Positions 31,589-58,382 of a stretch of DNA of 64,000 nucleotides are shown one piece after another. Both the position numbers and the translations under genes were made by a program. The DNA lies in NCBI GenBank assembly GCA_021018995.1, contig CM037587.1, positions 86,363,251 through 86,427,250 of the forward strand. The letters run 5' to 3'. The notes beneath the pieces were generated by a model that saw only the letters and a list, made by a program, of their open reading frames with translations, was not told the origin of the DNA and did no database searches. Position 1 is the first letter of the stretch; the number at the start of each line of letters is the position of its first letter. This DNA is from Chloranthus sessilifolius. Lineage: Eukaryota > Streptophyta > Magnoliopsida > Chloranthales > Chloranthaceae.

Positions 31589-31807
31589 TGGCGCAACTAA
31601 TAGTTGCGCCAAGCCATTTTCCCCCTGGATTTGCCTGGCGCAACTAATAGTTGCACCAGGCTTCTTTTCCCTCAGAAATGGCCTGGTGCAACTAATAGTT
31701 GCGCCAAGTATAAATGGGTCCCCCCACCCCTCGCGAAGCCAACTTCTAGGCTACTGTTCGTTACTGTTTTACTATACATTTGCCTGGTGCAACTATTAGT
31801 TGTGCCA
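31589..31807. repeat. GGCGCAACTA palindrome cluster 1 (four units)
   Basis: Units at 31589, 31636, 31684 and 31785, each 23 bp, with arms TGGCGCAACTA and TAGTTGCGCCA around one central base and up to three mismatches. Steps are 47, 48 and 101 bp. Lies 285-500 bp upstream of the TATA box, in U3. Confidence 0.95.
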
Positions 31808-32089
31808 CGTATATGAATAGTGACTATTAGATTTTGCTCCGAATTTCATGATTGGGGTTTGACTTGTTGACCACCTCAACCTTTAGGGTGTATTTTGATA
31901 GTTCTGTTGCACCCATTCACTACCTATTTGCAACCCCTTAAGTGGCTTAAGGCCTCACCCCATCATCCACCATTGGAGGTTCCTTCACACCTTTCCAAGC
32001 TCTTAAAATCCTAGGAAACCTTAGATGGCCCATTTCCTAATTCCTAATCTTTCTTAGCCTCTAAGTAGCTTCCTAATCCACCCATTTTC

Positions 32090-32098
32090 TATAAATAG
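32090..32098 (+). promoter_or_regulatory. TATA box of Tat-type solo LTR
   Basis: TATAAATAG, conserved in the other two LTR copies on the minus strand (38064-38072 and 57466-57474). Marks the U3 to R transition by inference. Confidence 0.68.
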
Positions 32099-32824
32099 AG
32101 CCCCCCTCCCCTTGGTTTAAGGGTTGAGAAATTTGCTTAAGACAGAAAGAGCTCAAAGTGAGAAGTTCTTTCTCCCTTTTGTGCACTATTTTCACCCAAA
32201 TTCTAGAACCTCCCAACCTCATTTCAAGCTTGTTCTTACATCCAAAACCCTTAGCCTAGGTGTGTGTGATCCCCTAGCCTCCCTTCCCTACCTCTTAGCT
32301 TCAATTCCTAGGAGTTAGAACCTCATTTTCCACCATACAAGGCCTTCAAGGGCTCATCAAAGCAAGCCACACAAGGCTCCTCTACAGTGCTACAAGGGCC
32401 CGAGGGCTCCGGCTCTCTCCTTTCTTCTCCTATCTCTTTCTAGCTCCCTCTATCCTCCCATTTGTGTCGTTACGCCGCCGATTTTTCGGTAGGAACGAAG
32501 GGGCACAAATAGGATTCTAAGCCCTTTTGGGCAAGAGGAAGCTATTTTCTTTTCTTTCACTTCATTTTATTTTTGGCCATTAGTAGAGATCGCATTAAGC
32601 GGGTTGATCGGGTGCCTAATACCTTCCCAATCGATAACCGAAGCCCCTACACGAGCCTTTGGTGTAGACCGGATTCAGAGTCATATTTTTAGCACTTCGG
32701 TGCTCATAAAAATGAACTAGGTATCCCGGGACACCAAAAGCTCTGGGTGGTGACTCTATATTTTTTCGTTAGAGAGCGCATCGTCGCGATGGGATCGTCT
32801 TGATTCCCACGGTTGCACAGAGCC

Positions 32825-34423: not shown

Positions 34424-34428
34424 ACTCC

Positions 34429-35251: not shown

Positions 35252-35266
35252 TCCCCTCTACTTTGA
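35252..35266 (-). promoter_or_regulatory. Polypurine tract of element D
   Basis: The minus strand reads CAAAGTAGAGGGGAT directly before the LTR start, the priming site for plus-strand DNA synthesis. Confidence 0.75.
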
Positions 35267-36003: not shown

Positions 36004-36004
36004 A

Positions 36005-37342: not shown

Positions 37343-38959
37343 TGTGCAACCGCGGGATCCGTGACTGTCCCGTCACGACGATGCGCTCTCTAATAAAAAT
37401 ATAGAGTCGCCACCCGGAGCTTTCAGTGTCCCGGGAAACATAGTTCATTTTTATGAGCACCGAAGTGCTAAAAATATGACTCTGAATTCAGTCCACACCA
37501 AAGGCTCTTGGGTAGGGGCTTCAGTTATCGATCGGGAAGGTGTTAGGCACTCGATCAACCCGCTTAACGCGGTCTCTACTAATGGCTAAAAATAAAATAG
37601 AATGAAAGAAAATGAAATGGTTCCCTCTTGCCCAAATGGGCTTCCAATGCTATTTGTGCCCCTCTGTTCCTACTGAAAATTCGGCGCCGTAACGGCACAA
37701 ATGAGAGGGAAGGGAATGCCAAAAAGAGATAAGAGAGGAAAGGGGAGGGCCGGAGCCCTCGGGCCCTTGTAACACCGTAGGAGAGCCTTGCATGGCTTGC
37801 TTGGAGGAGCTTTTGAAGGCTTGGATGGTAGAAAAACGGGTTCTAACCACTAAGGCTTACTAGCTAAGAGAGGGAGAAGGGAGGCTAGGGGATCACACAC
37901 ACCTAGGCTATGGGTTTTTGATGTAAGAACAAGCTTGGAAGAGGTTTTGGAATTCTAGAATTTTGAGGGAAAATAGTGCACCGAAGGGAGGAAGAACTTC
38001 TCACTTAGAGCTCTTTCTCTCTTAAGCAAAATTCTCAACCCTTAAACCAAGGGGTGGGGGGCTCTATTTATACGAAAGGAGTGGATTAGGAGGCTACTTA
38101 GATGCTAATTGGGGTTAGCAATTAGGGAATCTCAAATCTAAGGTTTCCTAGGATTTTGAGAGCTTGGAAAGGTGTGAAAGTGGTTCTAATGGTGGATGAA
38201 GGGGTGAGGGTTTAAGCCACTTGGAAGGTTGCAAATAGGTAAGGAATGGGTGCAACAAAACTATCAAAACACATCCCAAAGATCAAGATGGTCAACAAGT
38301 CAAACCCTAATCTTGAAATTCGAGGCAAAACCCAACAGTTACTGTTCATATGCCTGGCGCAACTATTAGTTGCGCCAAGCAAATGTACAGTAAAACAGTA
38401 GTGTACAGTAGCCTGGAAGTTGGCCTCGCTAGGGGTGGGGGACCCATTTATATCTAGCGCAACTAATAGGTGTGCCAGGCCATTTCTGGGGGAAAAAGAC
38501 CTGGCATAACTATTAGTTGCGCCAGGCAAATCCAGGGGGAAAATGGCCTGGCGCAACTATTAGTTGCGCCAGGTAAAAATCCCTCCGAAAAAGCCTAATT
38601 TTTAAATGGTCATAACTTTTGATATACAATTCCGATTGAGGCGAATCTTAGTTTGTTGGAAAGATGGAGAATTCCTCTTTCCAATGGTATATGATTTGAT
38701 ATCAGTAAAAGAACTTATATAGTCCTAGTGTACCACTCTTCATCCATTGCCCGAGAAGGTTAGGTTTAGGGTTCAAAATGGGTTCTAAGGGTCGGGATTG
38801 GTTTCTAAAGGTTTGGGATAGGTTCCTAAGGGATCTAAGGTGATTCTTAAGGGTTTGGGGTGATTCCTAAGGGTTCCATTCATGCCATCAAAAGCTCAAA
38901 AATATGCCTCTCTCGAAATGCATTTCGATCGGGCCTTGGGCCAAATTTGGGTGTCTACA
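37343..38959 (-). mobile_element. 3' LTR of Tat element C
   Basis: 1617 bp, minus-strand start TGTAGACACCC and end GGTTGCACA. Full length relative to the solo LTR at 31200-32819. Contains a minus-strand TATA box at 38064-38072 and four palindrome units. Confidence 0.95.
38355..38571. repeat. GGCGCAACTA palindrome cluster 2 (four units)
   Basis: Units at 38355, 38455, 38502 and 38549, steps 100, 47 and 47 bp, a mirror image of the step pattern in the inverted solo LTR at 31589. Located in U3. Confidence 0.95.
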
Positions 38960-38974
38960 GATGCCCCTCTTTGG
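38960..38974 (-). promoter_or_regulatory. Polypurine tract of Tat element C
   Basis: Minus strand CCAAAGAGGGGCATC immediately before the 3' LTR start TGTAGACACCC, matching the PPT style of Tat elements. It fixes the element's orientation. Confidence 0.88.
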
Positions 38975-40768
38975 TATCTGATCACTAGTGATCGTATGCC
39001 AAAGAAAAGAGACATCCGAAGAGGCCCAAGGCATTACTGATGGGTCCGCTACATTCAGAACAAACTTCAAACATTAGGTGAGTAACACGGTGAGAAAACG
39101 AAAGCCCTGGAGTGCGAGGCTAATCATTCGTTTCTCAAGGTCATCAGTTCCCAAGTGCTTAGCGACATTACTGGGCATAACCGAGGTGGCATGAGTTGCG
39201 AACTCCCTATAGTCGGGAAAGACGTTCACTTCATGGGATGATTTGGAAGGTATTTGATGTTTAAGATTTATTCTGAATTCAAAGATAGGTGCGGAGTAAA
39301 CATACGCAAGGCTCCACAACTTGCGTCCAATCCTATGAGGCATTTGATGACCTCATTGGATTATTCGCGGGTGCCCTTACAGAAAGCATGGTTCTTAATC
39401 TTTGGGCGAGCCCATCGATCCCAAAGTTTATTTTGCATGACCACCTGAGCGAAGTGAATAGATGTCAGAACTCTTTTTAGGAGTGTGTGCCATTTTTCTG
39501 AAAGCAAGTCTCGGCTCGGCATGGTCTAGAGCATCCAACTCCTAACCTCCTTGAACAGATCTAACCAAACATTAGGCATCTCCTAAGAAAAGAGGCATCC
39601 AATCCTGGTCTCTGTTGACAATGATCATAATCATCAATTAACTATGCATAATCATGCACCCATCAGGGGCAATAAGCAATAACAAAGGCGATGGAAGCCC
39701 GACCCGGACCCGCCCGGGTACAATTTACGGGGACAAACGACCATCATATGGATACCCAGACGCCAGGCGTACAGTTTACAGGGATAGCGCTGCCTATACA
39801 GGTTTTAAGCCTATAGAAAATAAAAGGAAAATGAACCCTTCCGAATGCATGGTTGCACATAGTTTGATTGATGGGTAATCTCATTCTTAACAGGTTGGTT
39901 TCAACCAACGATTGACCTTTTTCAACGAGGAATTTGAAGTTTAAGACACTTAAGTTCATATGAGTCCAAAACAAAGCGCTCATCATAAAGATTTAGCAGT
40001 GGAGTTGACCTAATCGAAACATTGACTTTTTGACCGCGACCAACACCGTTGCTCCCACCTTGAAGTAGGATCCAGAATCCAAGGGATGCCTTAGACTTAG
40101 GACGTTAATGTTGCACAACTGCATTGCTGATAAAATATCAATATTTTACCGCTTTATGCTTGTGCGCACTGTGGGGAATGTAAATCCATTTTTTTTTTTG
40201 GTTTTCTATATGTGATTTTTCTTTGAATTTTCTGATTGCTATTTTGTATATTTTTCGGGATTTTTTGAAGTTTATTATTTTATGTGAATTTTTTTGGAAT
40301 TAAAAAGCTATTATTTTATGTGAATTTTTTGAAGTTTAAAAGCTACCATTTTATGTGACTTTTTGAAATTTAAAAGCTATCATTTCATGTGAATTTTTTG
40401 AAATTTTGAAGTTTATTTTTCTGAACTTTTTCAGAATTTTGAAGTTTATTTCCTTGAACTTTTCGGAATTTTGAAGTTTATTATTTTTTTTGAATTTTGC
40501 AGTTTATTGTGTTACCCCCCTTTTTGTGAGGTCTTTTGTGAATGCTTCTGGCTTCTCTGCTGGGGATTTTTATATGACTGAGGTACTTGCTGACCCTGGC
40601 CCATTTTTATTTTAGCACGGCTTCCATAGCAAGTCGAAGGATAATCGAAATGTCGTCTTGGGGGCGCGTGCATCGGACGGGAGCAGCGGAATGAATCATC
40701 CAAGGGGGAACGGGGGACCCGTTCTTCTCATCTGGCCCAGACCCGACCCAAGACCTGGCTTAACTGGC
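38975..40768. other. Element C 3' untranslated spacer
   Basis: No gene on either strand. Contains an imperfect tandem repeat at 40215-40505 of about 38-40 bp units (ATTTTATGTGAATTTTTTGA, then AGTTTAAAAGCTA) and otherwise mixed-composition DNA seen in Tat 3' regions. Confidence 0.6.
40215..40505. repeat. Tandem repeat of about 38-40 bp
   Basis: Six or seven diverged units around TTTTGAAGTTTATTATTTTA and TGTGAATTTTTTGGAATT. Its position between the 3' LTR and the antisense promoter region suggests a spacer role only. Confidence 0.75.
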
Positions 40769-40886
40769 TGGCGCAACTATTAGTTGCGCCAGGCCACTAG
40801 GGGCCTCAAAATAGCCTGGCACAACTATTAGTTGCGCGAAGCAGATGGGGGAAAAAGTTTACCTGGCGCAACTATTAGTTGCGCTA
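40769..40886. repeat. GGCGCAACTA palindrome cluster 3, upstream of antisense gene 1
   Basis: Three units at 40769, 40817 and 40864 (steps 48 and 47), followed by AGGTTTAACTGGGGG, the same tail as cluster 4. It lies about 210 bp before the predicted first (untranslated) exon end of the plant-mobile-domain gene. Confidence 0.95.
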
Positions 40887-41099
40887 GGTTTAACTGGGGG
40901 TTTTTTAAAACAGCCCGTACACGGGCTGTGGGGCTTTTAATTGGAAATTTTCCCCCTCCCCTCCACTTCTTTGAAACCGAAAACTGCCCCATGCCTAGGG
41001 TTCCTTTATATTGCCTCTCCACGTGCCCATTGCCGTTTGTTTTACTCGTGGATTGATCGCGGGCCCACGCTAGATCAAAGACCCCATTCTTCTTCACAT

Positions 41100-42134
41100 G
41101 GTAACCATTAAAACTTATTTTTCTTGATTTTTCTTGCTTCTTTATGTAAATATGATCGTATTCTTAGATGATAAATGGTTTATTTCTATGCTATTGATGA
41201 TGTGTTGATGATTTCTTATGAACAATGCCCTATTTTTGTTGTTTTATGGATTTATTGGTGCCTAATATACATATATTTTTTTATTTGTGTATATAGAAGG
41301 GATTTTTATTTTTGTTGTTTTTTGTTTGTTTGTTTTTTTTGTTTTTATGTCACATATAAAGCAATGGATTTTTGATCTTTTATTTTGATATATATATTTA
41401 TTATTTATTTATTTATTATTATTATTTTTTTTGAACCCTAATTTAGGGAAAAGGGATTTTTGGTTTTTTTTTTTTTTTTTTTAATGTTTTTATAGAAGAA
41501 AGGCCCTTCTATTTTTGGTTTTTGATTTCAGGAGCATAAAAGGAGGGATTCTTGAACATAAGAGAAAGAGATTTGTTTTTGCTTGTTTTTTTTTTTAATT
41601 TTTAGGAGCATAAGAAAGTGATTCCCTCTTTTTTTTTTTTTTTTTCGAAACATACAAGGACCCTAAAAGATGAGCCTTCTCTTTTTGGTTTATGTTTTTA
41701 GGAATATAAAGCAAGGATTTTTATTATTATTATTCTTTTTTTGATAAAAGAAAGACTTTTTCTTTGGTTTTGATTTTTAGAAGCATAAAGAAATGATGAT
41801 TTTTTGTTTTTGTTTTTCTAAACACAAAAGGACTTTTTCCTTGATTTTGATTTTTAGAAGCATAAAGAAATGATGATGATTTTTTTTTTGTTTTAAGTCG
41901 CTTTATTTTTACATACAGAAAAGGAACGTTTGTTTTGTTTTATTATTTTTTTAAAAAAAGGGGAAGGATTTTTTTTCATTTTTTTCATTTTTATTCTATT
42001 TAAAGGAGAGATTTTTTTGTATGTGTGTATCTTTATTCCTGAAAAATAGAAAAAGGGGTGAGCATACTTACCTTCTCTTGGCGTTAGCACAAAAATGGTT
42101 CTTTATCACTGATCTATTTTTTTTGTTGCCCCAG
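41100..42134 (+). other. Probable 5' leader intron of antisense gene 1
   Basis: An extremely T-rich 1-kb stretch bounded by CACATG|GTAACC on the left and TTGCCCCAG|CATG on the right, a typical plant intron composition. Within it the phrase TTTTAGAAGCATAAAGAAATG recurs (41776 and 41849), so part of it grew by duplication. The upstream exon is unproven. Confidence 0.5.
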
Positions 42135-42135
42135 C

Positions 42136-44585
42136 ATGTCGGGCAGTGAAGAGCACATCCCTGAGGAGGGTCAGGAGTAGGGGCCTGAGATAGTGTATGG
42201 CCCACGGGGAGAGCAGTTTCTCTGGGTGGAACGGAGAGCAGGCCTGTGGCTTGAGATGTAGGGTGAGGCTGCCCGGGTTGGCCTCTTACATCAGCAGTAC
42301 ACCCATATCTCGAACTTCGGAATAGCGGGCAAGGTAAAAGATAGGTTCAATTTCTTTCTTTTACATAGTTTTACTTTACTTCTGCAATCTGATGTGCATT
42401 TCTTTGGGTGTAGGAGCTTCCTACCATTGTATTCCATGGGGGGTGGCTCGACTTCCATGAGTTTTACCTCTATGTCCCTCCAGTGGTGAAGGTCCTGTTG
42501 GAGCAGGTGGGCTTTGGGGAGTTCCTGTCTTGTCTTGCCATGAGGGTTGACGCGGCCTACTTGATAGCCTTGATCGAGAGATTCCGTCCCGAGACCATGA
42601 CGTTCCACATGCCCTATGCCGAGATGACATTGACACCGGTTGACTGAGCCATGATTACTGGCATCAGGGTTGGGGGAGTGTCGATCTCCACCTAGCAGTA
42701 CCAAGTCAGGAAGACATTATTCGGTTGATCGGGGCCTATCCTCCTCGTGGGCAAACCCATGACACAGAGGTTAAGATGTCCTGGCTGACCTCCCTCTTTT
42801 CTGTTGATGAGATGGTGGACCTGGGTCAGCCGGATCAGGAGCTCTATATTACGCCGGAGCGGGCGATTGTTTTCGCTCACATTACCCTCCTACCCCTGCT
42901 AGGCAAGACCCTCTTTACAAATGCCAGCGGGGGACGAGTTAGCCTGGCCTTGCTAGGCATGATGGATAATTAGGGCGACGTCCCTAGGTATGACTGGGGA
43001 GGGGCGGGATATGCCTGGCTGATGTACAACTTATCCCGGGTTACGACTGCGGATTCGAAGTCTATCGTGGGATTCTGGGCTGCCCTGGAGGTAATTCCTC
43101 ATTCCTTTGCTTTTATCCCCATTTATTTTCATCATCATTTTTTTTTTGTTTTCTTTTTTATATGTGCTACTGACTTGCTTTTGCGTCATGCCCCTTTTTT
43201 AGGTGTGGGGATATCATCACTTCCACCCTGGTCATCCGCTTATATTCTCGAAGGTGCTAACTTATCCCCTCCTCAGCAACTGGAGCCAGTCTCGACGTCG
43301 TGACATGGGCCTAAAGCACCTGGAAATGGGCCTAAGGTCTCAGCTTGATTTGATGGCCCCCGAGCAGGTGATGACTTTTCAACCTTTGTTCACTTTTGGC
43401 TTGGACATTTCTTTTTACTGAGGTGTTGCCTGCTTGGTTTCTCTTCTTTGGTTGCAGATCCTCCCTGACCCGTACCTGACATCTCCCTTCTGAGACCGAG
43501 CAGCTGTGGGTTCCTCCCGCCTATTTAACAATCGCCGCGTCATCTTCTTTTATGGAGCATGGGCCAGGTGCTACTATATGGGGGAGAGGGTGGTGCACCA
43601 GTCCAGGGCTACTACGCCATACCTGTAGACCCTCCGGCAGATGTTTGGAGTCCTGCTGGTAGTATTGAGGAGCTGACGGCAGCCTTCTTCAACAATGGGT
43701 TCCCGATCCATGCCCTTCATGTGCCTGGGGACTATCATTTCTGGTATGAGTGCCTGCCTCATCGATTCATCCTATCGCGCTTTGTCCCTAGTGCTAATTT
43801 TCTCGCATTTGGCGGCCCGATCGGTCAGGTAACCTCCTCTCATCTTAGATTAGTTTCCTTCTCATTTTGACTCAGTTTTTACCTAAGTGGGTATTTCTTC
43901 TGTTCACAGTTTGCTCCGGAAGATGATTCGGATGGTGAAGGGGGGCCTAGTACTGCTGACATGTCTAGAGTAGATCCCTCAGGTGCTGGTCCTTCCGGTG
44001 CAGGTCCCTCGGGTGAGGGTTCCTCGGGTGCTGGTCCATCGGGCACCTCTCAGGCGGGTATCCCTGGTGGTGGATCGTCTATAGTTTATGGGACCTTTCG
44101 GCGCCTTGATGATAGCTTCCTCTCGGGCCTCTGTGCTGATGTAGATCAACAGGCACGACTTTCTGCTGTGGCGGCCAGCGTTCCCCCTCTTGAGGTGGTT
44201 CCAAGGGTAAGTCTTTTGCTGAGCCAATCCTCCTCTATTTTGGTTTCCATCTGTACGTGCTTCCTGAGTTGTCCTGATAATTGAATGTTTGTATCGCTAG
44301 ACTTCAACTCGGCCATGGAATATGCGAATTACCATCGTCATCTGGTAGAGCTTAGGGAGGTGGAGAAGGTGGGTACCTGGCAGCTTAACTCCTCTCATTC
44401 ATTTCTTGGTTATTGGCCCCTTAACTAATCTTGATCTTGATTCTGCTTTGCAGCGTGCCCGGGCTAAGGAGTCGCTCTCCCTGCTGAGTAGGATCTCGCA
44501 GGCATGGTCCAGGGTGGGGGACATGCGGACCTACCAGAGCTCCTCCCGTCGTCGTAAGAAGTCAAAGGGCGCAAGCCAGGAATAG
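42136..44585 (+). pseudogene. Antisense gene 1: plant mobile domain (PMD) protein, seven exons, broken
   Basis: The plus strand, antisense to pol, gives exons 42136-42333, 42414-43090, 43203-43367, 43458-43828, 43910-44206, 44301-44368 and 44454-44585, all with GT/AG borders and compatible phases. Exon 2 holds YLIALIERFRPETMTFHMP and YAEMTLTP, the signature of the plant mobile domain, known from MAIL/MAIN-type host proteins and Tat antisense ORFs. Exon 5 has a Ser-Gly-Ala-Gly-Pro repeat (43979-44060), exon 7 ends in a basic tail KKSKGASQE. At least seven in-frame stops (near 42168, 42225, 42645, 42693, 42728, 42972, 43491) and a shift near 43600 disable it. PMD function in retrotransposons is unknown. 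Confidence 0.78.
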
Positions 44586-45081: not shown

Positions 45082-45252
45082 GGTTTAACCTGGGGGCAGT
45101 GGGGCCTTATATGCTCGAGTTGGCCCAGAAATCTTTTCTCCTCTTTTTTGTTTGACTTGGCTCGTTTGACCGGCCCTTTTTGTTTTTTGCAAGGCGGGTC
45201 CATCACCATACACTGATTTTCTTTAATCTTCCCAAAAGATCCTTGTACGTTC

Positions 45253-46750: not shown

Positions 46751-48156
46751 CTCCTTCCTGCACATGGAACTTTTCACACAAATCAAATACACAGGAAAGG
46801 GGCATAAGAAACCCCTCTACAGATATACACACATTTTTTGGTATACATATTTTCTTTATGTTTTTGTTGTTTTTGTTTACTTGTAAAAAGGGAAAGCACG
46901 CTAGTCACCACACCGACTATTTTTTTGGGATGTGGTGTAAGTGGTGCACAAGGTGGTTTAGTATATACATCTACACAGGCCTTTTGGTTTTTTTATTTAT
47001 CGTTTTCTCCCCTCTTTTTTGGGTTTTGTTTTGTGCATTTTTTTTGGGTGCCTTAATCAGTGAGGTGAAACCACGGGTCCTATTTTGAGCATGACCGAAT
47101 CATTTCGTGCAATCGGACCGAAGTGAATTTTTGGATTTTACCAAGGCTGGAACACTGATCCCGTTGGGCTGAGTCAAACCTTTCTCCTTGCCTCGGGTCA
47201 TGCATTTGACGGTGCAATTTCACAAAGACAATTCTGGTAGGGACTCGATTCAAACTTAGCACGAGCGGCCCAATCGGCTAATGAGTAACAGGGAGGGTGA
47301 AAAAAGGGTTCCTCAAACAACAATCAATCATTTCAAACCTTTCTTCTTTTCTTTTCTTTATTTATTTTTTTTATTTTTTATCTCCCCCTTTTTTTACCCG
47401 TGGCACCCTATCAGGTTTTCACCACGTCCATGGGTTTAGCTTTCTTACCCCAAGCGCCCTTTCGAGTTTTCACCTGGTCCGCACAAGCCAACTTTTTTAC
47501 CCATAGCGCCCTTTCGGGTTTTTACTACGTCCATCTTGCTTTGAGCTTGTATTTTCATTTTGTTTCTTTTTCAAAAGCCACGACATAGACGTTGATTCCA
47601 TCATAGCCGGCTGGATGGGGTCCTAGTGTAGTCTTACGACTCGGTTCATGTTGACTTAACAGATACTATGACTGCTTGCAAACCTACAAAGAGGGCTTCC
47701 TTCAGGGTGTAGCTTGGCCATGGGTTAGGTTAGGATTTGAAGGTATGCTGGGCTAAAAGGGGTTTTCTTGATGTGCCTTCAGTTTTCTCAGCATACTTTC
47801 TTCCTTGGGGGTTTTGCTGTACATGCCCCCTGAATCTTCTATTTTTTTCTATTCCTTCTTCTCTCTCTTTTTTTTAAAAAATTTCAGGCAATCTCTTTTT
47901 GAGGTTTTGCTTTTCCAATTTTTTTTGGTTTTTTGATAGCAACTTTTTTTTTTTTTTTGGGTATATGTACACACGCCTTTTTTTTTTTAGGGGAGGGGTT
48001 TATTGAAAAAAAGGCCCGGGCTCATATGGGATAGCAAAGGATATCCTCATTTTTAGGGACACTTTCTGGCTACGGTGTTTGGAATGCTGGCCTCTTTTAA
48101 GTGGTTCTTAAGCAGTCATGCATCTGTTTCACCAATATTTACCTTATTGCAATAGA
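46751..48156. other. Convergent spacer between antisense gene 2 and pol
   Basis: No gene. Two transcription units converge here, so it should hold both 3' ends. A tandem repeat at 47397-47540 has about 60-bp units with AGCGCCCTTTCGGGTTTTCAC and CACGTCCATGGGTTTAGC. Long T runs occur at 47947-47959 and 47980-47990. Confidence 0.6.
47397..47540. repeat. Tandem repeat, about 60 bp, 2.5 units
   Basis: Units share GCGCCCTTTCGGGTTTTCAC followed by (A/C)ACGTCC and a T-rich half ending TTACCC. Lies just past the last codon of pol in element C. Confidence 0.75.
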
Positions 48157-49335
48157 CTAAGAGTAGAACTGTCGAACATATCCAGCGTTGATGGGCTCAG
48201 GAAGATGATCTCCGTCCATGATGGCGAGGCGGATGGCATATCCCGACAGCACTTCTCGAATGACGTATGGTCCTTCCCAGTTCGGCTTGAATTTTCCCCT
48301 TGGATCGGCGTGGAGGGATGGGAAGATCTTCTTTGGCACAGTGTCTCCTACCTTCAGATCTCGACTGCGAACACGTTTATTGTAAGCGCGTGCGAATCGC
48401 CCCTGGTAAACCTAAGTGTGGCATAAGGCTAGGAGTCTCTTTTCATCAAGTAAGTTTAGCTGGTCAAAGCGGGATCTCTCTCTCTCTGCTTCGGGTAAGC
48501 CTGATTCTATGAGGATTCGGAGTGAGGGAACTTCAACCTCTACCGGGAGGATGGCCTTGGTTCCATACACAAGGGAGAATGGTGTTGCCCCTGTAGCGGT
48601 ACGGATCGACGTTCGGTAGGCCCACAAAGCAAATGGCAGCATTTCGCTCCAATCTCGATAAGTGACGACCATTTTCTCAAGGATGCGGATGACTGTCTTG
48701 TTCGCGGCTTCCACGACTCCATTGGTTTGAGGCCGATAAGGGGATGAGCAATGGTGCTTGATCTTGTATTGCTCACAGAAGTCTCGGATGCGCTTATTCG
48801 CAAAGTTTGTGCCATTGTCTGTGATGATATCTTTGGGTACTCCGAATCGGCACACAATATTGTTTTTGAGAAACTTCTCGACGTGACTGGCCGTGATGTT
48901 GGCATATGACGCCGCTTCTACCCACTTGGTGAAGTACTCAATGGCGACGAGGATGAACCGATGTCCATTTGATGGTTTTGAGTTAATCATTCCGACAACG
49001 TCAAGGCCCCAGGTAGCAAATGGCCAAGGAGTGGTCATGCAGTGAAGATCAATGGCAGGAGCGTGTATCAGACTGGAGTGTTCTTGACACTTGTAGCATT
49101 TTTGAACATGTTTGCAGCAATCTGATTCCATAGTGGTCCAAAAGTGTCCCTGCTATAAAATTTTCTTAGCGGGCATGTGACCGCTAACGTGGGCTCCGCA
49201 TACTCCTTCATGGATTTCTTTCATAATATTGACCGCTTCACTTTCAGTAAGGCACCTGAGTAAGATGTTATTGTATGATCGCTTGTAGAGGCATTCCCCG
49301 TAAATAACGTAACCTGCCGCTAAACGTTGAATGGT
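48157..49335 (-). pseudogene. Integrase of Tat element C (nearly intact core)
   Basis: Integrase joins cDNA to the chromosome. Minus strand: HMPAKKIL, a TAG (about 49156), then CCKHVQKCYKCQEHS completing the HHCC zinc-binding domain; catalytic core with Asp in TWGLDVVGMI, Asp in ITDNGTNF and Glu in NGVVEAANKT; open from 49131 to 48412. A frameshift near 48400 leads to the C-terminal block DPRGKFKPNWEGPYVIREVL, ending at 48157. There is no chromodomain, as expected in Tat. The whole DDE triad is kept. Confidence 0.92.
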
Positions 49336-50841
49336 TCGTCAGTCTGTCTTGGGCGTACCCTCTGGGAAAGTTAGGGTCTCGAGGAAATTCTTGATATCTG
49401 AGAACCAAGGTGGCTCACCATCAGGCTTTGTAGGATCCTCAATCTGGAGGCAGAAGGCCAGCTCATTCCTCTGCTCGATCATGATCGGCTTCATTTCAGC
49501 ACCATACGGGATTTCAATCATTGACGCCAGAGTGGCTAATGCGTCAGCAAACCGATTCCTTATCCAGGGGACATACGAGAAAGTCACATCTTGGAAGCAA
49601 CCTATCAGGTCCTCGAGGTGTTCATGATAAGGGATCAACTTCTCGTCTTTCATCTTCCAATCACCATTCGTCTGGCATATAATTAACTATGAATCTCCAA
49701 ATACTCAAAGGTGAGTTATATTTAGATCAAGAGCTGCTTGCAGACTAGCGGCACAAGCTTCGTACTCAACCATGTTGTTAGTGCAAGGAAAGCTGAGCTT
49801 GATAGAGACGGGTACGTGGGATCCTTTCGGTGAAATCAGAATGGTGCCAACTCCTTGACCCTCGGCATTGGCAGCCCCGTCAAAGTGTATTACCCATGAT
49901 TCTTCTGCTTCTTCAGTATCGTCCTCCGTCATGAACAAGTTATCTTCATCTGGGAACTCGATCCTTAATGGCTCATAGTCGGGTAAAGGATTGTCAGCGA
50001 GATGATCAACAAGCGCCTGCCCCTTGATCGACTTTTGAGTGACATACGTGATGTCAAACTCAGATAATAACAACTGCCATCGTGCAGTCCGCCCAGTGAG
50101 AGCCTGTTTTTCGAACAAGTATTTTAACGGATCCATTCGAGCTAAAAGTAGAACAGCTTGAGACAGCAAGTAGTGGTGGAGTCTCTGGGTAGCCCATACA
50201 AGGGCTAGGCATGCTTTCTCCATATGAGAATAGTGCATCTCGTAATCAATGAATTTCTTGCTCAGATAGTAGATGGCCTGCTCTCTTCTTCCCGTCTCGT
50301 CATGCTGACCTAAGACACATCCCATCGAAACTTCCATTGTGGAGAGATACATTAAGAGTGGTCTTCCCGACTCAGGTGGTACCAAAACAGGTGGATTCAG
50401 GAGGTAGCTTTTGATTTTATCGAACGCTGCCTGACAATCATCATAACATTCAACGGGCGAATTCTTCCTTAGCAGCTTGAAGATCGGCGTGTAGATAGGT
50501 GTTAGCTGTGTAATGAACTGACTGATATACTGTATTCTGCCCAAAAATCCTCTAACCTCTTTCTCGATAGACGGCGGTGGCATTTCAGTGATGGCTTTAA
50601 CTTTGATTGGGTCAACCTCGATCCCTCTCCTACTGATGATGAACCCTAGCAGTTTCCCTGACATAGCCCCGAACGCGCACTTCTGTGGGTTCAGACGTAG
50701 TCGATACTTCCTCAGCCTTTCAAACAGCTTCTGAAGGTTTACCAGATGGTCGCTTCGCTCTGGTGACTTGGCTATCATGTCATCGACATACACCTCAATC
50801 TCTCGATGCATCATGTCATGAAATAGTGCAGTCATAGCTCT
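49336..50841 (-). pseudogene. RT palm, RNase H and second RNase H of Tat element C (broken)
   Basis: Minus-strand frame 50835-49705 begins after a TAG and contains YVDDMIAKS (catalytic Asp pair), FLGRIQYISQFI, RNase H motifs AIYYLSKKF and DITYVTQKS, then a second RNase H with WVIHFDGAANAEGQGVG and TNNMVEYEACAASLQ (catalytic Asp and Glu present), a Tat hallmark. Just past this, two in-frame stops (about 49705 and 49690) flank the VFGDS motif carrying the next catalytic Asp. The last part, RNRFADALATLASM, is open at 49653-49339. It copies and trims element RNA in an intact copy. Confidence 0.92.
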
Positions 50842-51363
50842 CTAGTATGTTGCACCGGCATTCTTCAGCCCGAATGGCATGACTAGATAGCAAAAGGTTC
50901 CCCAGGGGGTAATGAACATTATCTTCTCGCGATCAACCTTTGCCATTTTGATCTGATTGTATCCTAAAAATCCATCCATGAAAGAGAGCATCCCGTGCTT
51001 AGTTGTGTTATCGACCAAAATGTCGATGTGTGGCAATGGGAAATCGTCCTTTGGGCTCGCCTTGTTCAAATTATGGAAATTGATACACATGCGGACCTTT
51101 CCATCCTTCTTTGGCACAGGTACGATATTGGCTAGCCATTGTGGGTATTTGGATATCATGAGAAACCCCTCATCGTATTGCTGGATGACCTCATCTTTGA
51201 CTCTCAGCATCCATTTGGGTCGGAGACGTCTCAGCTTCTGCTTGACTAGCTTCATATCAGGGTAGAGGGGCAACTCATGCTCGACCAAATCGATATCTAG
51301 ACCGGGCATGTCCTCGTACGACCAGGCAAAAATGTTTTGGTATGACCGAAGGAAGTCGATCAT
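50842..51363 (-). pseudogene. RT fingers and palm start of Tat element C
   Basis: Minus-strand 173-codon frame: FAWSYEDMPGLD (pre-RT), LANIVPVPKKDGKVRMC, NKASPKDDFPLPHID, FMDGFLGYNQIKM with the first palm Asp, and VMPFGLKNAGATY. It stops at TAG immediately before the block with YVDD. That stop sits where related proteins keep Gln, a single C-to-T change on the coding strand. Confidence 0.92.
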
Positions 51364-52194
51364 GCTTTTTCTTTCCTCAGGAAATAGTGACGTTCCGATC
51401 TTGGTTTTCTGGGATCCTCCTCAGTTCCTAGATTGACATCCTTGGTTTCCTCAACAATGGGGGTAGGGCCATGCTCAAAGTCAAAAAATTCATCAAGGAG
51501 CTCATTGGGGAGCTCCTCGAAGGGGATATCCTCGTCCAGACTCATGATCCCTACCTCTTCTTGTATTTTTACAGGGAAGGGGTCGATTTCACGTGGGTCG
51601 GGCATTTTGATTAAGGCATCCTTTTGTGGGGCATTTTCTAGAATTTTAAATGACAATATTTTTGAACCTTAGACTTTTTCAATGTTTTTGGGATTTTGTA
51701 TTTTATCCATGTTTTTGAGTTTTTATATTTTTTCCATGTTTTTGAGATTTTTGCTTTCTTCGGAGATGGACCCTTGGCAAGGCGGGTTGCTATATACACA
51801 AGGTATTGCCTGCCAAGGGCTTATCTCACTTTTTCTAGGTTATTTTTTTTAGGAAACAGGCGTCAAACTTTAGGCCACTTCCTGCTTCCAGAGTTTGGGG
51901 TAAAGATGCCCAGTTGCGTACCTGAAGGGCCGCTTCTTTACCTATTGGGATGGAGGGTGCTGACTGATATGGCTCATTGGAGTCAACCTCTATCATATTG
52001 ATCCCCATTTCGTCTGAGATGATATCCTCAAACGTTAACACGGCTTTGTGATGATTCACCACAGTGGGAGTTTGTTCAGGTTCTGACCGTCGCTCCTCAA
52101 AAAGGGACAATGCGGCCAAATCTATCTGCAAGCTTGGAAGGGAGATCTGGGGATTGGTGGGATGGACTGGGGCTATGGGTTTGTGTGGGGTCAA
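51364..52194 (-). pseudogene. Linker between protease and RT of Tat element C
   Basis: Minus-strand frames 52194-51835 (VLTFEDIISDEMGINMIE) and 51656-51360 (acidic, DEDIPFEELPNELLDEF) are typical of the low-conservation connector before RT in Tat pol. Two stops and a T-rich stretch at 51660-51760 separate them. No catalytic motif is expected here. Confidence 0.65.
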
Positions 52195-52386
52195 ATGGGT
52201 TGCCCCATTTTGATTGATCTTTACGACCCCTACGCTGAGAAAGGAATCCCTTATGTGTGGCCTAGGGCGAGGTTTCTCCTCTATGTTGATTCCTCGAGCT
52301 CTTACAGCCGCGGCAACCCTGGCTTTCTCTTTGGCCTCTCAGACCTCTTGCTCTGTGGGCTTATAACCTAGCCCGAATCTTACTTT

Positions 52387-53286
52387 TTATCCTTTAGCCA
52401 CAACTGGCTCTCTTCTGCCTTGCAATCTGGGCCCAAGTCCTCGGCCTTTCTGATAACCCCACTTTTGGAGCATTGCCACGGCCGCTACCATACCGCCTCC
52501 TGTCTTAGGCATGATGCCCTCAATAGGCTCTGGGAGTATTGCCGATACCTCATACTCGAAACTGTGGAGGTCGACATCCTCGGCAGTGTGTGGTATATCT
52601 AACATGTTGGGTTTCTCCACGCTGTTGGCAGCTTTTTCTTTCTCACTATGCCCTTCCCCAATGATTGTAACAATTTTATGCCCAGACACGAATTTGAGCT
52701 TCAAGTGTAAAGTGGAAGATATGGCTCCGACCTCGTCCAGCCATGGGCGCCCTAATAATAAGTTAAAGGAAGATTTAATATCCATGACTTGAAACAATAT
52801 GGAAAAGGTCATTGGCCCTATCAATAGCTCAAGATCAACTTCTCTCATTATTTCTCTCCTGGTATTGTCAAACCCTCTAGCGGTGGTTCTGGTGGGCCTT
52901 AACATGCACGGATCAACCCCGATCTTGGTGGCGGTTCTCAATGGGCATATATTCAATGCAGACTCATTAGCAATTAGTACTAAGGGAATAACCATGTTTC
53001 TAAATTCAACGGCTATATTTAAAGACTTGGAATGGCTACACCCTTCCTCTGGCAAATCAACATAAAAAAATGAAATGGCATTCGGGGTCATTACTTGCCC
53101 AATTATCTGCCCAACCTCATCTGGGCTGACTTGTAGTGATACATGTGCATTTTTCAACACCCCCATTAATGCTTGGAAATGTAGTGGGGACGCCATCAAC
53201 AGATCCCATACGGTGATATGGGCAGGCATCCTTCTCAGCTGAGTCTCCAGTATATGTTCTCGACTCATCTTCTCGAAGGGGTTCAC
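52387..53286 (-). pseudogene. Protease with G-patch of Tat element C
   Basis: Minus-strand 299 codons. Contains PLVLIANESALNICPL, the active-site region, then FNLLLGRPWLDEVGAI, and ends in KWGYQKGRGLGPRLQG, a G-patch (RNA-binding Gly-rich motif) as seen behind Tat proteases. In active relatives the site has Asp and Gly (DNGS type); here the catalytic Asp is Ala and the Gly is Glu, so the enzyme should be dead although the frame is open. This is the longest open frame of the sense strand apart from RT/RNase H and gag. Confidence 0.88.
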
Positions 53287-56200
53287 CGCGCTGTCTTTCT
53301 TTCTTTCCTTCGGGTTGAGCCTGTGCTACTGCTGGTGCTTCTGGCTGCTTCAATATTCTCCCCGACCTGGTAACAAAATCTACTACCCCTTCTTTGCTGC
53401 TGTTGCTGGCATTGGCATCTGTTTGTTCATAGCTCAGTGGGACCTGATGAGGATCATAGGTTGGTCCCGAGAGCTGAAAAGGTATGACTGCTGGTACTTG
53501 AGGCACTTGTACTATCCGCTCGGGAGGTGGGGGCAATACTTGATTCTCCTCGGTGGTAGTGGGTCTGGTGGAAAGATTGGGCCAAATGGGGGTGGTGAAG
53601 CTTGAGTATGGTGGCACCAGAGGGAAGGAGGTAAAGGTAGGCCATTGAATTGTAGATGGGGGTTTGATGGGTATTGGATTGGGGGCTGGTGGTTGAAGGG
53701 TATGGAGTCGATGGGGGGTTGTGGTATATGGAATTGGTAGGGAATGGGTTGTGGCTGGATGGGTAGTTGGAATGGGAGTGCGGGCCATAGGATGGGGGGG
53801 GCCTGTTGGCTCATTGGGTAATTGATGGGGGTTGTGGTGTATGATTGGTATGCATTAATATTCACATAATTGACGGGTGTGGTGGATGGAAAATATGCCC
53901 TGAGATCCAATGGTTCAACTTGCGGAGTCGGGTTGGGGAAATAATCTGACAAATTCAGGGGTTCAATAACCCCGACATTCCTTTCTTTAATGTTTCTTAA
54001 CACTGGTGCTATATAGCTCTCCCAATCGCTGATATAATCGGACGGGTCAAATTCAAACTCCTCATCTTCTATCATTTCGACGGTGGATCTGGGACCTGCT
54101 CCTTCGATGGGATGTGGGGGTAGTGGCACTTGATGAATACTAGCATGCTGAGAAGGTGCGGGGGGAATGATTTTCCCGACATCGATCAAATCTTGGATTG
54201 CGTGCTTCAAGGGGAAGCAGCGATCAGTAGGGTGACCCAAACCCTGATGAAAATTGTAGTGGGTATTCGGGTCATAGTTCTTCGGGATTGGGTGAGGAGG
54301 AGGTTGTGGTTGACGGATAGCAACTAATCCCTTTTCCACCAATAGGGGCAACAGTACACTCAAGGATTGCCCCAGAGGCGTAAAAACTCGATCGTAGTGG
54401 GCTCTCCTCTGCTCAGGGGTCATTTGCATTCCTGGCCCATTCCCCATTCTTTGTGCCTCGTGCCTAATCGGTGCTAGTGGGCTCACCAAACGAAAGCAGA
54501 TATTATTATTGGGCCTGGTGTTGGCTACGTTCTGGACATCGCCCCCTGTTCTCTTCTCATTCCTCTGCTCAGAAAATCTTCTAACCCCACTGGGTCCGCT
54601 CGGTATGTTCTTACTTAGACGCCCCTCCCTGATGGCATCCTCGCATCGGTTAGCATTTCTTACCAGATCAACAAAGCTGGACTGCTGCTAGTATACCAAG
54701 AAGTCTGAAATTACTGGCAGAGTGCTCTTCAAAATCATCTCTACCTGTTCTTCGTCAGGTATTCTATTCCTGATCTGAGCTGCTAGCGCTCTCCATCGCC
54801 CCAAGTAGTCGCTGAAGGTCTCGTTCTGATTATGCTTTAAATGGGCTAAGTCGGACTTACGCAGCTCAATGTCTATGTTGTAGACATACTATTCTTGGAA
54901 GAGGTGCGTTAAGTCCCTCCATGTTTTCATCATAGATGGTTCTAAAGATGTGAACCATCTCAAAGCCGGCCCAATCAAACTCTTCTGAAAGACTTTTATT
55001 AGTAGTCTTTCGTCCTCCCCGTACTGGCACATGTCCCCATAATAGGACTTGAGGTGCGCAATAGGATTGCCCGTGCCATTATATTTGTCGAAGGCGGGCA
55101 TTTTGAATTTGGGGGGCAAGGGGACCTCAGCGAACAGGCATAGGTCTGTGAAGTCTGTGGCGTGGATCTCAGCACTACCCATTTTCATTAGCTGCTTCTA
55201 TATTTTATCTAACTGCTCTTTCAGCTGTTCTGACTCCTTTGATATAGGGGCTGCCTTCTCCACCGTAGGTTGGACTTCGCTCTAGGCTATTAGGGGATGG
55301 GCACTTATGGGAGGAGGGTGAAGGCTGGTCAATGCCCCAGCATAGGCCCCGCTATTTCTAATCTCGTCCTCTTCATACTGCTAGTGGGCATAATGTGTAG
55401 CGAGGGCGGGATTCTCCTGTTGTTGTTGCATGGGATGGATGGGAATGATATGAGTAGGGGTTGGGTGAGCCCATTAGGGGTGAGGAAAGGTCTGTTGGGT
55501 GATGGGGATTTGGTTTTGAGGTGAGGCCTGATGGGACCATTGGGTATGGGGGAAGGTTTGGAAATGGCCTTGGGGTGTAGGGCCATGGGAAAATTGGGCT
55601 TGGGGTATGATATGGGCTTTACTCGGTTGTGAGGGTTGGGTTAAATGTTGGGAGTATTGTGGAAAGTATGGGGTTTGGGTTTAGGTTTGGGCCATGAACC
55701 CTTGATCATTTTGGGTCATGGGCCACTGATGGGTTTGGGCCATGGACCCTTGGTAGGTTTGGGCCATGGGCCTTGGGTATGCTTGGACCAATGGGCCTTG
55801 GTAGGTCTAGGCCATGGGCCCTTGATGGGTGTGGCCCAATGGGCCTTGAGGGGGTATGGGTCGTGGGCCCTTGATGGGTCTGGCCTAATGGACCTTGACA
55901 GGTCTGGGCCATGGGCTCTTGATGGGTCTGGCCCAATGGGCCTTGATGATTTTGGGCCATGGGCCCTTTGTAGGCCTGGGTCATGGGCCCTTGGTTGCCC
56001 ATGGCCCAATGGGCCTTGATGGATTTGGGCCATGGGCCCTTAGTGGGTATGGGCCATGGCCCTTGGTGGGTCTAGCCGATTGGGTTTTGAGGGGTATGGG
56101 CCATGGGCCATTGGTGGGTTTGGGCCATGGGCCCTTTGTGGGTTTGAATTTGATGGTTTTGGCCCAATGGGCCTTGGGTAATGGGGTTTTGGGCCAATGG

Positions 56201-56933
56201 GCCTTGATGAGTGTGGGTGATAGGGTATTGGGCCATTGGGCCTTGGAGATCATGGGTGGTGGGGAATTGGATGGTGTGGATTATGGGAGGTTGGTGGGGG
56301 TCATGGGGGAGTGAGGCATGGAGATTGGCTAGAGTGTGGGAGGGGTTCATGAATGTGGGGTGTGGAGGAGAGGTGACTTGGGAAGCCTTCCATGAGGAGT
56401 AGGCTTGGAACATTTCCTCCATCATGGCCATGGAAGGGGGATCGGATATGGATGGTGGGTTTAATGGATGATTGGGTCTAGATGGGGTGGATGTAGAGGG
56501 AAAATTGGGTATGGCCATGGTAGATGATGGATTAAAGGAATGGGGTGGATTAGAGAGTTGAGGTGAGGTAAAGGATGAGGAAGAATTAGGGATGCTTATG
56601 GGTGATGGTTGGTGGGGTGTGGATGTTTGGAAAAAAACGGGCATGGCCCCAGTAAAAATGGGCATGACCCGGGTAGATGGGGGGATTTCTGGGGGATTGG
56701 TTAAGGTGGAGGTGACATAGGTGAATGAGGGCGGATCGAGTCTATAGGGGGATGATGGGAATTGGGGCATGGACGTGGATTGGGAGAATGGGTTAGGGTT
56801 TTGCATGGGCATGGTTTGGGCCAAAGATAGAGAATGGGGGGTTGGATTTTGGATATTTTGGGGGGTAGTGGTTGGGAAGATGGGGGCGCCGAATGAGCCG
56901 ATAACGGTAAAGGGAGATTGGGTGAGGGGGACT
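53117..56933 (-). pseudogene. gag of Tat element C with expanded repeat tract
   Basis: Gag makes the particle. The minus strand reads through from the truncated LTR at 56934: Pro/Thr/Gln-rich N-terminus (56824-56072), a minisatellite-encoded tract (56250-55640), a core with KMPAFDKYNGTGNPIAHLK, SLIGPALRWFTSLEP, HNQNETFSDYLGRWRALAAQ (55130-54780), and NFHQGLGHPTDRCFPLKHAI (54250), a knuckle-like stretch whose first Cys is not kept. A Pro-rich tail follows with DFVTRSGRILKQP (53380). Stops or shifts occur near 56070, 55325, 54888, 54690 and 53510. The normal start codon and leader were lost with the LTR 3' end. Confidence 0.85.
55640..56250. repeat. GC-rich minisatellite inside gag (about 30-bp units)
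   Basis: Around 19 units built on GGGCCATGGGCCCTTGATGG with a TTTGGG or CTGGCC linker. On the minus strand it encodes a roughly ten-residue unit, HQGPMAQT / HQGPLGQT, repeated; several units are shifted by one base, so the reading frame changes along the array. The embedded GGGCCCATGGCCC is itself palindromic. Confidence 0.9.
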
Positions 56934-58377
56934 TGGGTAGGGGCTTCGGTTATTTATCGGGAAGGTGTTAGGCACCCGATCAACCCGCTTAACGCGGTCT
57001 CTACTAATGGCCAAAAATAAAATTGAATAAAAGAAAAGGAAATGGTTCCCTCTTGCCCAAATGGGCCTCCAATGCTATTTGTGCCCCTCCGTTCCTATCG
57101 AAAATTCGGCGGCATAACGGCACAAATGAGAGGGTAGGGAATGCCGAAAAGAGATAAGAGAGGAAAGGGGAGAGCCGGAGCCCTCAGGCCCTTGTAGCAC
57201 CGTAGGAGAGCCTTGCGTGGCTTGCTTGGAGTAGCTTTTGAAGGCTTGGACGGTAGAAAAACGGGTTCTAACCACTAAGGCTTACTAGCTAAGGGAGGGA
57301 GAAGGGAGGCTAGGGATTTTTAATGTAAGAACAAGCTTGGAAGAGGTTTTGGAATACTATAATTTTGAGGGAAAATAGTGCACCGAAGGGAGGAAGAACT
57401 TCTCACTTAGTGCTCTTTCTCTCTTAAGCAAAATTCTCAACCCTTAAACCAAGGGGTGGGGGGCTCTATTTATAGGAAAGGAGTGGATTAGGAGGCTACT
57501 TAGATGCTAATTGGGGCTAGCAATTAGGTAATCTCAAACCTAAGGTTTCCTAGGATTTTGAGAGCTTGGAAAGGTGTGAAGGTGGTTCTAATGGTGGATG
57601 ATGGGGTGAGGCTTTAAGCCACTTGGAGGGTTGCAAATAGGTAAGGAATGGGTGCAACAGAACTATTAAAACATACCCCAAAGATCAAGATGGTCAACAT
57701 GTCAAACTCCAATCTTAAAACTTGAGGCAAAACCCAGCAGTTACTATTCAAATGCCTGGCGCAACTATTAGTTGCGCCATGCAAATGTACAGTAAAACAA
57801 TAGTGTACAGTAGCCTGAAAGTTGGCCTCGCGAGGGGTGGGGGGACCCATTTATGTCTAGCGCAACTAATAGTCACGCCAGGCCATTTCTGGGCGAAAAA
57901 GACCTGGCGCAACTATTAGTTGTGCCAGGCAAATCCAGGGGGAAAATGTCTCCAAAAAAACCCTCCAAAAAATCCAGGGGGAAAATGTCTCCAAAAATCC
58001 CTCCAAAAAAGCCTGATTTTTCAAGGGTCATAACTTTTGATATACAACTCCGATTGAGGCGATTCTTGACTCGTTAGAAATCTAGAGAAGTCCTCTTTCT
58101 AATGATATATGATTTGATATTTGTAAAAGACCTTAGATAGTCCTAGTATACCACTCTTCATCCATTGCCCGGGAAGGTTAGGTTTAGGGTTCGGAATGGG
58201 TTCTAAGGGTCGGGATTGGTTTCTAAAGGTTTGGGATAGGTTCCTAAGGGATCTAGGGTGATTCATAAGGGTTTGGGGTGATTCCTAAGGGTTCCATACA
58301 TGCCATCAAAAGCTCGAGAATACGCCTCTCTCGAAATGCATTTCGATGGGGCCTTGGGCCAAATTTGGGTGTCTACA
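56934..58377 (-). mobile_element. 5' LTR of Tat element C, 3'-truncated
   Basis: 1444 bp. It begins TGTAGACACCC (58377, minus) but homology to the 3' LTR stops at about 56934, so the end GGTTGCACA, the PBS and the leader are missing. Relative to the 3' LTR it also lacks about 30 bp near 57315 and the fourth palindrome unit, whose place is taken by a short duplication with CTCCAAAAA. TATA box on the minus strand at 57466-57474. Confidence 0.92.
57757..57927. repeat. GGCGCAACTA palindrome cluster 5 (three units)
   Basis: Units at 57757, 57858 and 57905 (steps 101 and 47) in U3 of the 5' LTR. The unit expected near 57952 is absent. Confidence 0.95.
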
Positions 58378-58382
58378 CATGT

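What the first reader, a model, noticed from the sequence alone, without database searches (positions are those of the whole stretch)
31589..57927. A 23-bp palindrome repeated 17 times in five periodic clusters, shared by LTR U3 and antisense gene promoters
Seen: arms GGCGCAACTA and TAGTTGCGCC around one base occur at 31589, 31636, 31684, 31785; 38355, 38455, 38502, 38549; 40769, 40817, 40864; 44964, 45011, 45059; 57757, 57858, 57905. Steps are 47-48 bp, with one step of 100-101 bp in each LTR. The LTR clusters lie upstream of the TATA box. The two internal clusters are three-unit versions with the same tail (AGGTTTAAC then TGGGGG), one 171 bp before the DUF7745-like ORF and one before the PMD gene's leader. 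Inference: a movable operator-like module for a dimeric protein, possibly encoded by the element, that coordinates sense and antisense transcription. Many units keep both arms despite wide decay elsewhere. RNA hairpin or siRNA source functions are alternatives.
Basis: partly seen in the sequence, partly recalled or inferred. Interest (0 to 1): 0.88.

Follow-up and report, generated by a model that had tools for sequence, protein, structure and literature searches.

The report
Palindrome arrays in an Ogre-like retrotransposon
A large plant jumping gene carries the same short mirror-image DNA word in evenly spaced rows in front of its own main promoter and in front of two genes that it encodes backwards, most likely as a docking array for a regulatory protein, possibly one that it makes itself.

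Summary
Seventeen near-identical palindromes (consensus CCTGGCGCAACTA-A/T-TAGTTGCGCCAGG) lie in five clusters and nowhere else in the window: in a solo LTR (31200-32819), in both LTRs of one 21-kb Ogre/Tat-like element (37343-58377, minus strand, TSD CATGT), and upstream of its two antisense genes, which match the plant mobile domain (PMD; gene A weakly).

The units are not protected from decay: between LTR copies they mutate about as fast as the rest. And the module is not turned to face each gene: the arrays keep one polarity in the element. The case for function lies between paralogous arrays: palindromes differ by 12%, spacers by 42% (one indel block allowed; with free gaps, substitutions alone show no significant contrast), and the 150-bp flanks of LTR and internal arrays are unrelated.

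Best reading: a dyad-symmetric DNA operator array that ties LTR and antisense genes to one trans-factor, not identified. The element's own PMD proteins, acting like VANC anti-silencers on VANDAL motif arrays, are the most interesting candidate; a host MYB-type factor is the main rival. RNA-hairpin selection gets no support. No other genomic copies could be examined.

The parts
31200..32819 (+). Solo LTR (S31) of the same family, TSD GAGCC at 31195-31199 and 32820-32824
31587..31809 (.). LTR array S31: four palindrome units, 47/48/101-bp steps
37343..58377 (-). Ogre/Tat-like LTR retrotransposon, 21.0 kb, TSD CATGT at 37338-37342 and 58378-58382
37343..38959 (-). 3' LTR (T38)
38353..38573 (.). 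LTR array T38: four units
40767..40888 (.). Internal array A: three units (48/47 bp), upstream of antisense gene A
41006..41011 (+). TATA-like word downstream of array A (promoter inferred only)
42138..44585 (+). Antisense gene A, PMD-type (piece 42414-42644 matches PF10536, E 4.6e-7, 29.8 bits, below the 34.9-bit cut-off; 7 other pieces match nothing), in short frames separated by stops and probable introns; ends approximate
44962..45083 (.). Internal array B: three units (47/48 bp), upstream of antisense gene B
45107..45112 (+). TATA-like word downstream of array B (promoter inferred only)
45253..46750 (+). Antisense gene B, PMD/DUF7745 protein; open for 280 codons from an ATG at 45253, then continues in pieces in another frame (this copy is broken)
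48412..56953 (-). Sense coding region: gag-side frames (by position; the one tested, 53515-54687, matches no family), G-patch, RT, RH, additional RNase H, integrase core (broken in several places)
56932..58377 (-). 5' LTR (F57), its 3' end and the first palindrome unit lost; lower end approximate
57755..57929 (.). LTR array F57: three remaining units

Best explanation
The palindromes are double-stranded DNA binding sites (operators) for one dyad-symmetric, probably dimeric, DNA-binding factor. The element carries them as spaced arrays in the LTR upstream region (U3) and in the upstream regions of its two antisense PMD-type genes, so one factor reaches both the LTR promoter and the antisense genes. 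Shown here: the arrays, symmetry, spacing, shared polarity, and lower divergence of palindromes than spacers between paralogous arrays. Inferred: protein binding, dimerisation, promoters and regulation. Identity of the factor is open. I put about one in three on the element's own PMD-type proteins, feeding back on their own genes and holding LTR and antisense promoters open against host silencing in the manner of VANC proteins on VANDAL motif arrays; about one in four on a host transcription factor.
For: 17 sites, 0 in 100 shuffles, and no intermediate ones. A 27-bp consensus with perfectly complementary 13-bp arms; the centre base is A (12) or T (5), never G or C, and is exchanged A/T between S31 and T38 in two of four LTR units, against 23 A/T exchanges in 797 A/T sites in all (p about 0.004, post hoc), as expected if the site is read as a dyad. 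Between S31 or T38, A and B (first three units each; F57 and fourth units left out) palindromes differ by 12.4% (45 pairs) and spacers by 41.5% (20 pairs), with no overlap of ranges; between two copies of the same LTR array the two do not differ (8 of 63 against 4 of 52), so the contrast arose before insertion. Genes A and B share the 137-bp array with its tail (77%) and otherwise only low-complexity or insignificant matches (blastn best E 0.007, blastp best E 0.02); the 150-bp flanks of LTR and internal arrays score no better than shuffled ones, so passive co-duplication with a gene does not explain the sharing. Steps stay at 47-48 bp in all five clusters. TATA-like words lie 27-121 bp downstream of arrays A and B.
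Against: No binding, transcription or methylation data. Only one full insertion and one solo LTR could be examined; the genome search did not complete (12 tries), and the searches of viral and prokaryote collections found no relative with the array, which says little because they are not plant genomes. Pairwise comparisons are not independent. When the spacers are aligned with free gaps, the palindrome-spacer contrast in substitutions alone is not significant (p 0.14-1.0 in the five inter-array comparisons); it rests on counting indels or allowing one indel block. LTR copies show no protection of the units. No structure supports DNA binding by the PMD domain (pLDDT 39; no solved relative).
Confidence: 0.6

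Rival explanations
1. Host-factor enhancer: the inner CAACTA-N-TAGTTG is two inverted MYB-like half sites (and the outer TGGCGC is E2F-like); a host transcription factor, not an element protein, binds the array, as defence factors bind Tnt1 BII boxes and NtMYB2 acts on Tto1. This shares the operator-array core of the best explanation and differs in the factor.
For: Seven of the ten columns next to the centre (11-13, 15, 16, 18, 19) are invariant in 17 units, though so are outer columns 1, 3, 5, 23 and 25. Precedents: BII boxes bind defence-induced factors (PMC3316501, passages); Tto1 activated by the R2R3-MYB NtMYB2 and MYB sites in Rider LTRs (PMC6762207, passages). The MYB and E2F resemblance of this motif is recalled, not from a call.
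Against: Conservation runs over 27 bp including the GGCGC arms, longer than a MYB site. Sharing with both PMD genes is not predicted by it. The inner columns also lack CpG, so their invariance may only reflect mutation.
Confidence: 0.25
2. RNA function: hairpins in the genomic RNA 3' region or in antisense transcripts, or small-RNA precursors.
For: The consensus unit folds to a 12-bp stem at -21.4 kcal/mol. Arrays A, B and that of the 3' LTR lie between pol and the RNA 3' end. PMD genes of tea give phasiRNAs (PMC10673657, passages).
Against: Wobble-type mismatches are equally common for either strand (12 and 12) and mean hairpin energies do not favour one strand (-14.4 and -14.7). No Rfam match in the window at gathering scores. 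The arrays lie upstream of, not inside, the inferred antisense transcripts.
Confidence: 0.07
3. Functionless tandem repeat spread by slippage, like the tandem arrays frequent in Tat elements.
For: About half of the recent Retand elements surveyed have tandem arrays, most often between pol and 3' LTR (PMC11963269, parts 1-3 of 5 read). Within copies there is no protection. Free-gap alignment gives no significant contrast in substitutions.
Against: A plain repeat should conserve spacer and palindrome alike; here they diverge by 41.5% and 12.4% with one indel block allowed. It does not explain perfect dyad symmetry or three upstream places.
Confidence: 0.1
4. Structural DNA role: cruciform extrusion, nucleosome positioning or a recombination or packaging site.
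For: 27-bp palindromes at about 47.5-bp steps (n+0.5 helical turns at 10.5 bp). Centre-base exchange could come from hairpin inversion.
Against: Short palindromes with no spacer seldom extrude (recalled). A purely structural site would tolerate compensatory arm changes, yet the same arm sequence is kept in 10 unit positions (LTR 1-4, A 1-3, B 1-3).
Confidence: 0.04

Closest known systems
VANC anti-silencing proteins and their tandem motif arrays in VANDAL transposons of Arabidopsis (PMC5735166 and PMC10398659, passages)
   Same: An element-encoded accessory gene and short motifs repeated in tandem in the element's own non-coding regions, including upstream of a gene; motifs evolve together. 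The VANC6 motif AGTTGTCC partly resembles the arm TAGTTGCGCC (may be chance).
   Different: VANDAL are DNA transposons (recalled); VANC motifs are 8-9 bp, arrayed in one orientation, and the word palindrome does not occur in either main text; here the accessory proteins are PMD-type and binding is unproven; steps are fixed at 47-48 bp.
Ogre lineage elements with PMD extra ORFs (PMC6317226, passages)
   Same: Additional RNase H between RH and INT, very large element, extra ORF with PF10536 (reported in 57% of Ogre elements).
   Different: Two PMD-type antisense genes, each with a palindrome array matching the LTR; no such array is mentioned in the passages seen.
Retand/Grande antisense accessory genes (PMC11963269, parts 1-3 of 5; PMC7264820, passages)
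   Same: Antisense ORF between pol and 3' LTR; tandem repeats; Grande gene23 has its own promoter; a regulatory role was proposed.
   Different: Most Retand clusters encode TRP28; no TRP28 match in the pieces scanned here; no shared LTR/antisense operator in what I read.
U3 enhancer sites of Tnt1 and Tto1 (PMC3316501 and PMC6762207, passages)
   Same: LTR promoter elements acted on by transcription factors.
   Different: Host factors; no antisense genes sharing the boxes are mentioned in the passages seen.
Host PMD proteins MAIN/MAIL1 and the promoter 'DOWN' motif (PMC7156037 and PMC9899485, passages)
   Same: PMD proteins tied genetically to a promoter motif and to transposon control.
   Different: The DOWN motif of the MORC1 promoter (CATGCAGTTT) has no exact match in the window; direct binding by PMD proteins was not known to the authors.

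Membership tests
Ogre/Tat Ty3-gypsy lineage | Additional RNase H (aRH), between RH and INT in Ogre and Retand | tested here: met
   RT_RNaseH in 49708-50841, RVT_3 piece 49372-49686 (E 1.7e-5, 25.2 bits against 21.6), integrase core 48415-49152
Ogre/Tat Ty3-gypsy lineage | RT phylogenetic placement with Ogre rather than Retand | not tested
   No named reference set was aligned; 2322 RT relatives were found, 120 listed, the top one 62% identical, none labelled by lineage
Ogre/Tat Ty3-gypsy lineage | PMD extra ORF (57% of Ogre) rather than TRP28 (typical of Retand) | tested here: met
   PF10536 E 1.4e-11 in gene B; no TRP28 match in the pieces scanned
Ogre/Tat Ty3-gypsy lineage | Primer binding site type | not testable with these tools
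   The 3' end of the 5' LTR and what follows are lost
VANC-like anti-silencing system | Element encodes an accessory protein of the VANC family | tested here: not met
   The accessory genes match PMD/DUF7745 only; no DUF1985 match in the pieces scanned. That VANC carries DUF1985 is recalled
VANC-like anti-silencing system | Motif in tandem arrays in the element's own non-coding regions | tested here: met
   Five arrays, in LTR or gene-upstream DNA
VANC-like anti-silencing system | The encoded protein binds the motif and removes DNA methylation in trans | not testable with these tools
   Needs binding and bisulfite data
Plant mobile domain protein | Match of gene B to PF10536 above the curated cut-off | tested here: met
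   44.7 bits against 34.9
Plant mobile domain protein | Same for gene A | tested here: inconclusive
   One 77-residue piece of 8 tested, 29.8 bits against 34.9
U3 enhancer bound by host R2R3-MYB (Tto1 type) | Host MYB binds and activates | not testable with these tools
   Only a recalled resemblance of CAACTA/TAGTTG

The most novel reading that the evidence does not exclude
Retrotransposon PMD proteins are sequence-specific DNA-binding anti-silencers/activators: the Ogre-type element encodes antisense PMD proteins that bind 27-bp palindrome arrays in its LTR and in front of their own genes, a self-feeding, family-specific switch that arose independently of VANC, and of which the host regulators MAIN/MAIL1 could be domesticated offshoots.
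Probability: 0.28. Interest if true: 0.85.

Novelty: new variant of a known kind. Interest (0 to 1): 0.6.

Why it matters
What antisense accessory genes of giant plant retrotransposons do, and whether PMD proteins touch DNA, are open questions in what I read: the MAIN/MAIL1 papers leave chromatin contact untested, and the Retand survey only proposes a regulatory role. This element offers a concrete candidate ligand, a 27-bp palindrome in fixed-step arrays in front of those genes and of the LTR promoter, so the question can be tested with one probe. If an element protein binds it, plants would have a second, retrotransposon-borne system of self-recognising anti-silencing.

Tried and rejected
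Protection of palindromes within copies: tested and rejected. RNA strand bias: tested, none. Co-duplication of a gene with its promoter: rejected, genes A and B share only the array with its short tail, plus low-complexity and insignificant matches. Recent capture of an LTR fragment: rejected, inter-array spacers differ by at least 31% and LTR and internal flanks are unrelated. Cassette turned to face each gene: rejected by spacer polarity. A first mask for CpG sites was one base off and corrected; the totals for whole palindromes are unaffected. Outside copies: viral contigs gave none; the 5 bacterial hits are about what chance gives for 18 fixed bases in 257 billion (my estimate, about 4) and were not read. 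Gene B protein: none of 3438 candidates scored E 10 or better in the protein set, no solved relative at E up to 1, structure model useless, so no fold search was run. Coiled coil at the C-terminus of gene B: simple heptad count inconclusive. MORC1-type DOWN motif in the window: no exact match. Paper search for the arm sequences: 62 papers hold at least one of three strings, 20 were listed, none of these with a title on a plant transposon; where the letters occur in them was not looked at. Searches for PMD with antisense and gypsy (2 of 2 listed), Ogre with palindromes (20 of 150 listed) and PMD with Ogre or DNA binding (20 of 26 listed) showed no paper that by title or start of abstract describes this array; subscription papers are mostly not held.

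Full report
WHAT IS THERE. Their consensus is a 27-bp perfect palindrome with 13-bp arms and a central A or T (17 of 17). They form five clusters with 47-48-bp steps and, in LTR copies only, one 100-101-bp step.

ANATOMY. The three LTR copies (S31, T38, F57) align over about 1.45 kb. S31 is a solo LTR, 31200-32819, flanked by GAGCC on both sides. T38 and F57 are the two LTRs of one insertion, 37343-58377 on the minus strand, flanked by CATGT on both sides. Their divergence, 84 of 1303 sites outside the palindromes (Jukes-Cantor 0.067), means some 2.6-5.2 million years at two rates that I recalled. The sense region carries RT, RNase H, an additional RNase H piece and an integrase core in the order described for Ogre and Retand. 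Between pol and the 3' LTR lie two antisense genes: gene B (from ATG 45253) matches PMD (E 1.4e-11) and DUF7745 (E 4.8e-6), both above cut-off; one piece of gene A, of 8 tested, matches PMD below the cut-off (E 4.6e-7). Both are broken in this copy. Neumann et al. report PMD in 57% of Ogre elements (PMC6317226, passages), so an Ogre-like element is likely; RT placement was not tested.

IS IT CONSTRAINED? Within copies, no: palindromes change about as fast as the rest (11 of 84 against 202 of 1344 for S31/T38; 7 of 63 against 84 of 1303 for T38/F57; 10 of 63 against 199 of 1303 for S31/F57), and 16 of 20 changes in the 21-bp core are C-to-T or G-to-A, 11 of them at CpG, which looks like methylation decay in dead copies. 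This does not speak against function, since dead copies are not selected. The informative comparison is between paralogous arrays, which diverged while the lineage was active. There (first three units of S31, T38, A and B; F57 and fourth units left out) palindromes differ by 12.4% on average (45 pairs), part of which is the later decay, and spacers by 41.5% (20 pairs), without overlap of ranges; array by array Fisher p is 3.7e-6 to 0.0038 for the five inter-array comparisons and 0.54 for S31/T38. Against this: the pairs are not independent, and with freely gapped spacer alignments the substitution-only contrast is not significant (p 0.14-1.0), since gaps absorb spacer differences (with gaps counted, p 0.00016-0.023).

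IS IT A COPIED BLOCK? Arrays A and B are 77% identical over 137 bp, including the shared AGGTTTAAC-GGGGG tail; beyond it genes A and B show only low-complexity or insignificant matches (best blastn E 0.007, best blastp E 0.02). In 150 bp on each side LTR and internal arrays have no homology above shuffled scores; A and B score 25 on the tail side against a shuffled maximum of 24. So neither gene duplication nor a recent LTR fragment explains the sharing.

POLARITY. Spacers of different arrays match in element orientation (0.703), and when flipped they match no better than shuffled ones (0.541 against 0.543). Seven of nine spacers hold a T-run followed by a C-run in that orientation. Hence each array has the same orientation within the element, while the LTR reads one way and the antisense genes the other. 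Either the array works in both orientations, as its symmetry would allow, or the LTR array also serves antisense transcription; the data do not separate these.

MECHANISM. A symmetric double-stranded DNA site read by a symmetric protein best fits the dyad, the A/T-only centre, the A/T exchanges between S31 and T38 in two of four units (p about 0.004, post hoc), the fixed step and the upstream places. TATA-like words follow arrays A and B at 121 and 27 bp, and the LTR TATA box at 284 bp; no start site is mapped. RNA hairpins are possible in principle (-21.4 kcal/mol for the consensus) but neither wobble counts (12 and 12) nor mean energies (-14.4 and -14.7) favour a strand, and no Rfam family matches at gathering scores.

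WHO BINDS? Unknown. For an element protein: the arrays stand in front of the two accessory genes and in the LTR, as VANC motif arrays stand in VANDAL non-coding DNA (PMC5735166, passages), and host PMD proteins are tied to a promoter motif, though not shown to bind it (PMC7156037, PMC9899485, passages). For a host factor: LTR sites of Tnt1 and Tto1 and a recalled likeness of CAACTA/TAGTTG to MYB sites. The structure model of the PMD protein was useless (pLDDT 39), so no fold evidence bears on DNA binding.

LIMITS. The host genome could not be searched, and the collections that could be searched are viral and prokaryotic and held no relative with the array. The protein set does hold plant relatives of the RT, but no DNA around them was reached. 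Everything rests on one full insertion and one solo LTR.

VERDICT. A real, unusual operator-type array that links LTR and antisense PMD-type genes of one element; a new variant of transposon self-regulation by motif arrays, with an attractive but unproven link to PMD proteins.

Noticed in passing
40910-40929: A second, different perfect inverted repeat, ACAGCCCGT/ACGGGCTGT with 2 bp between the arms, between array A and the TATA-like word of gene A; the same search does not list it for the array B region or the LTR stretch.
   Followed up: partly
31685-31806, 38356-38476, 57758-57879: The central base of units 3 and 4 is exchanged A/T between the solo LTR and the element's two LTRs, which might reflect inversion of the palindrome centre rather than point mutation.
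   Followed up: partly
55676-56174: A minisatellite with 24-bp steps on the gag side of the element, which there gives repeated proline- and glutamine-containing peptides.
   Followed up: no
34424-35250 and 58878-61515: Repeats of several hundred bases (85-95% identical), in direct and inverted copies on both sides of the element.
   Followed up: no
52390-53325 (-): A G-patch domain (PF01585, E 6.9e-7) in the frame between the gag-side frames and RT.
   Followed up: no
36317-37081 (-): A frame just outside the element with weak, below-cut-off matches to retrotransposon gag (E 0.0011) and zinc knuckles, perhaps a remnant of another retrotransposon.
   Followed up: no
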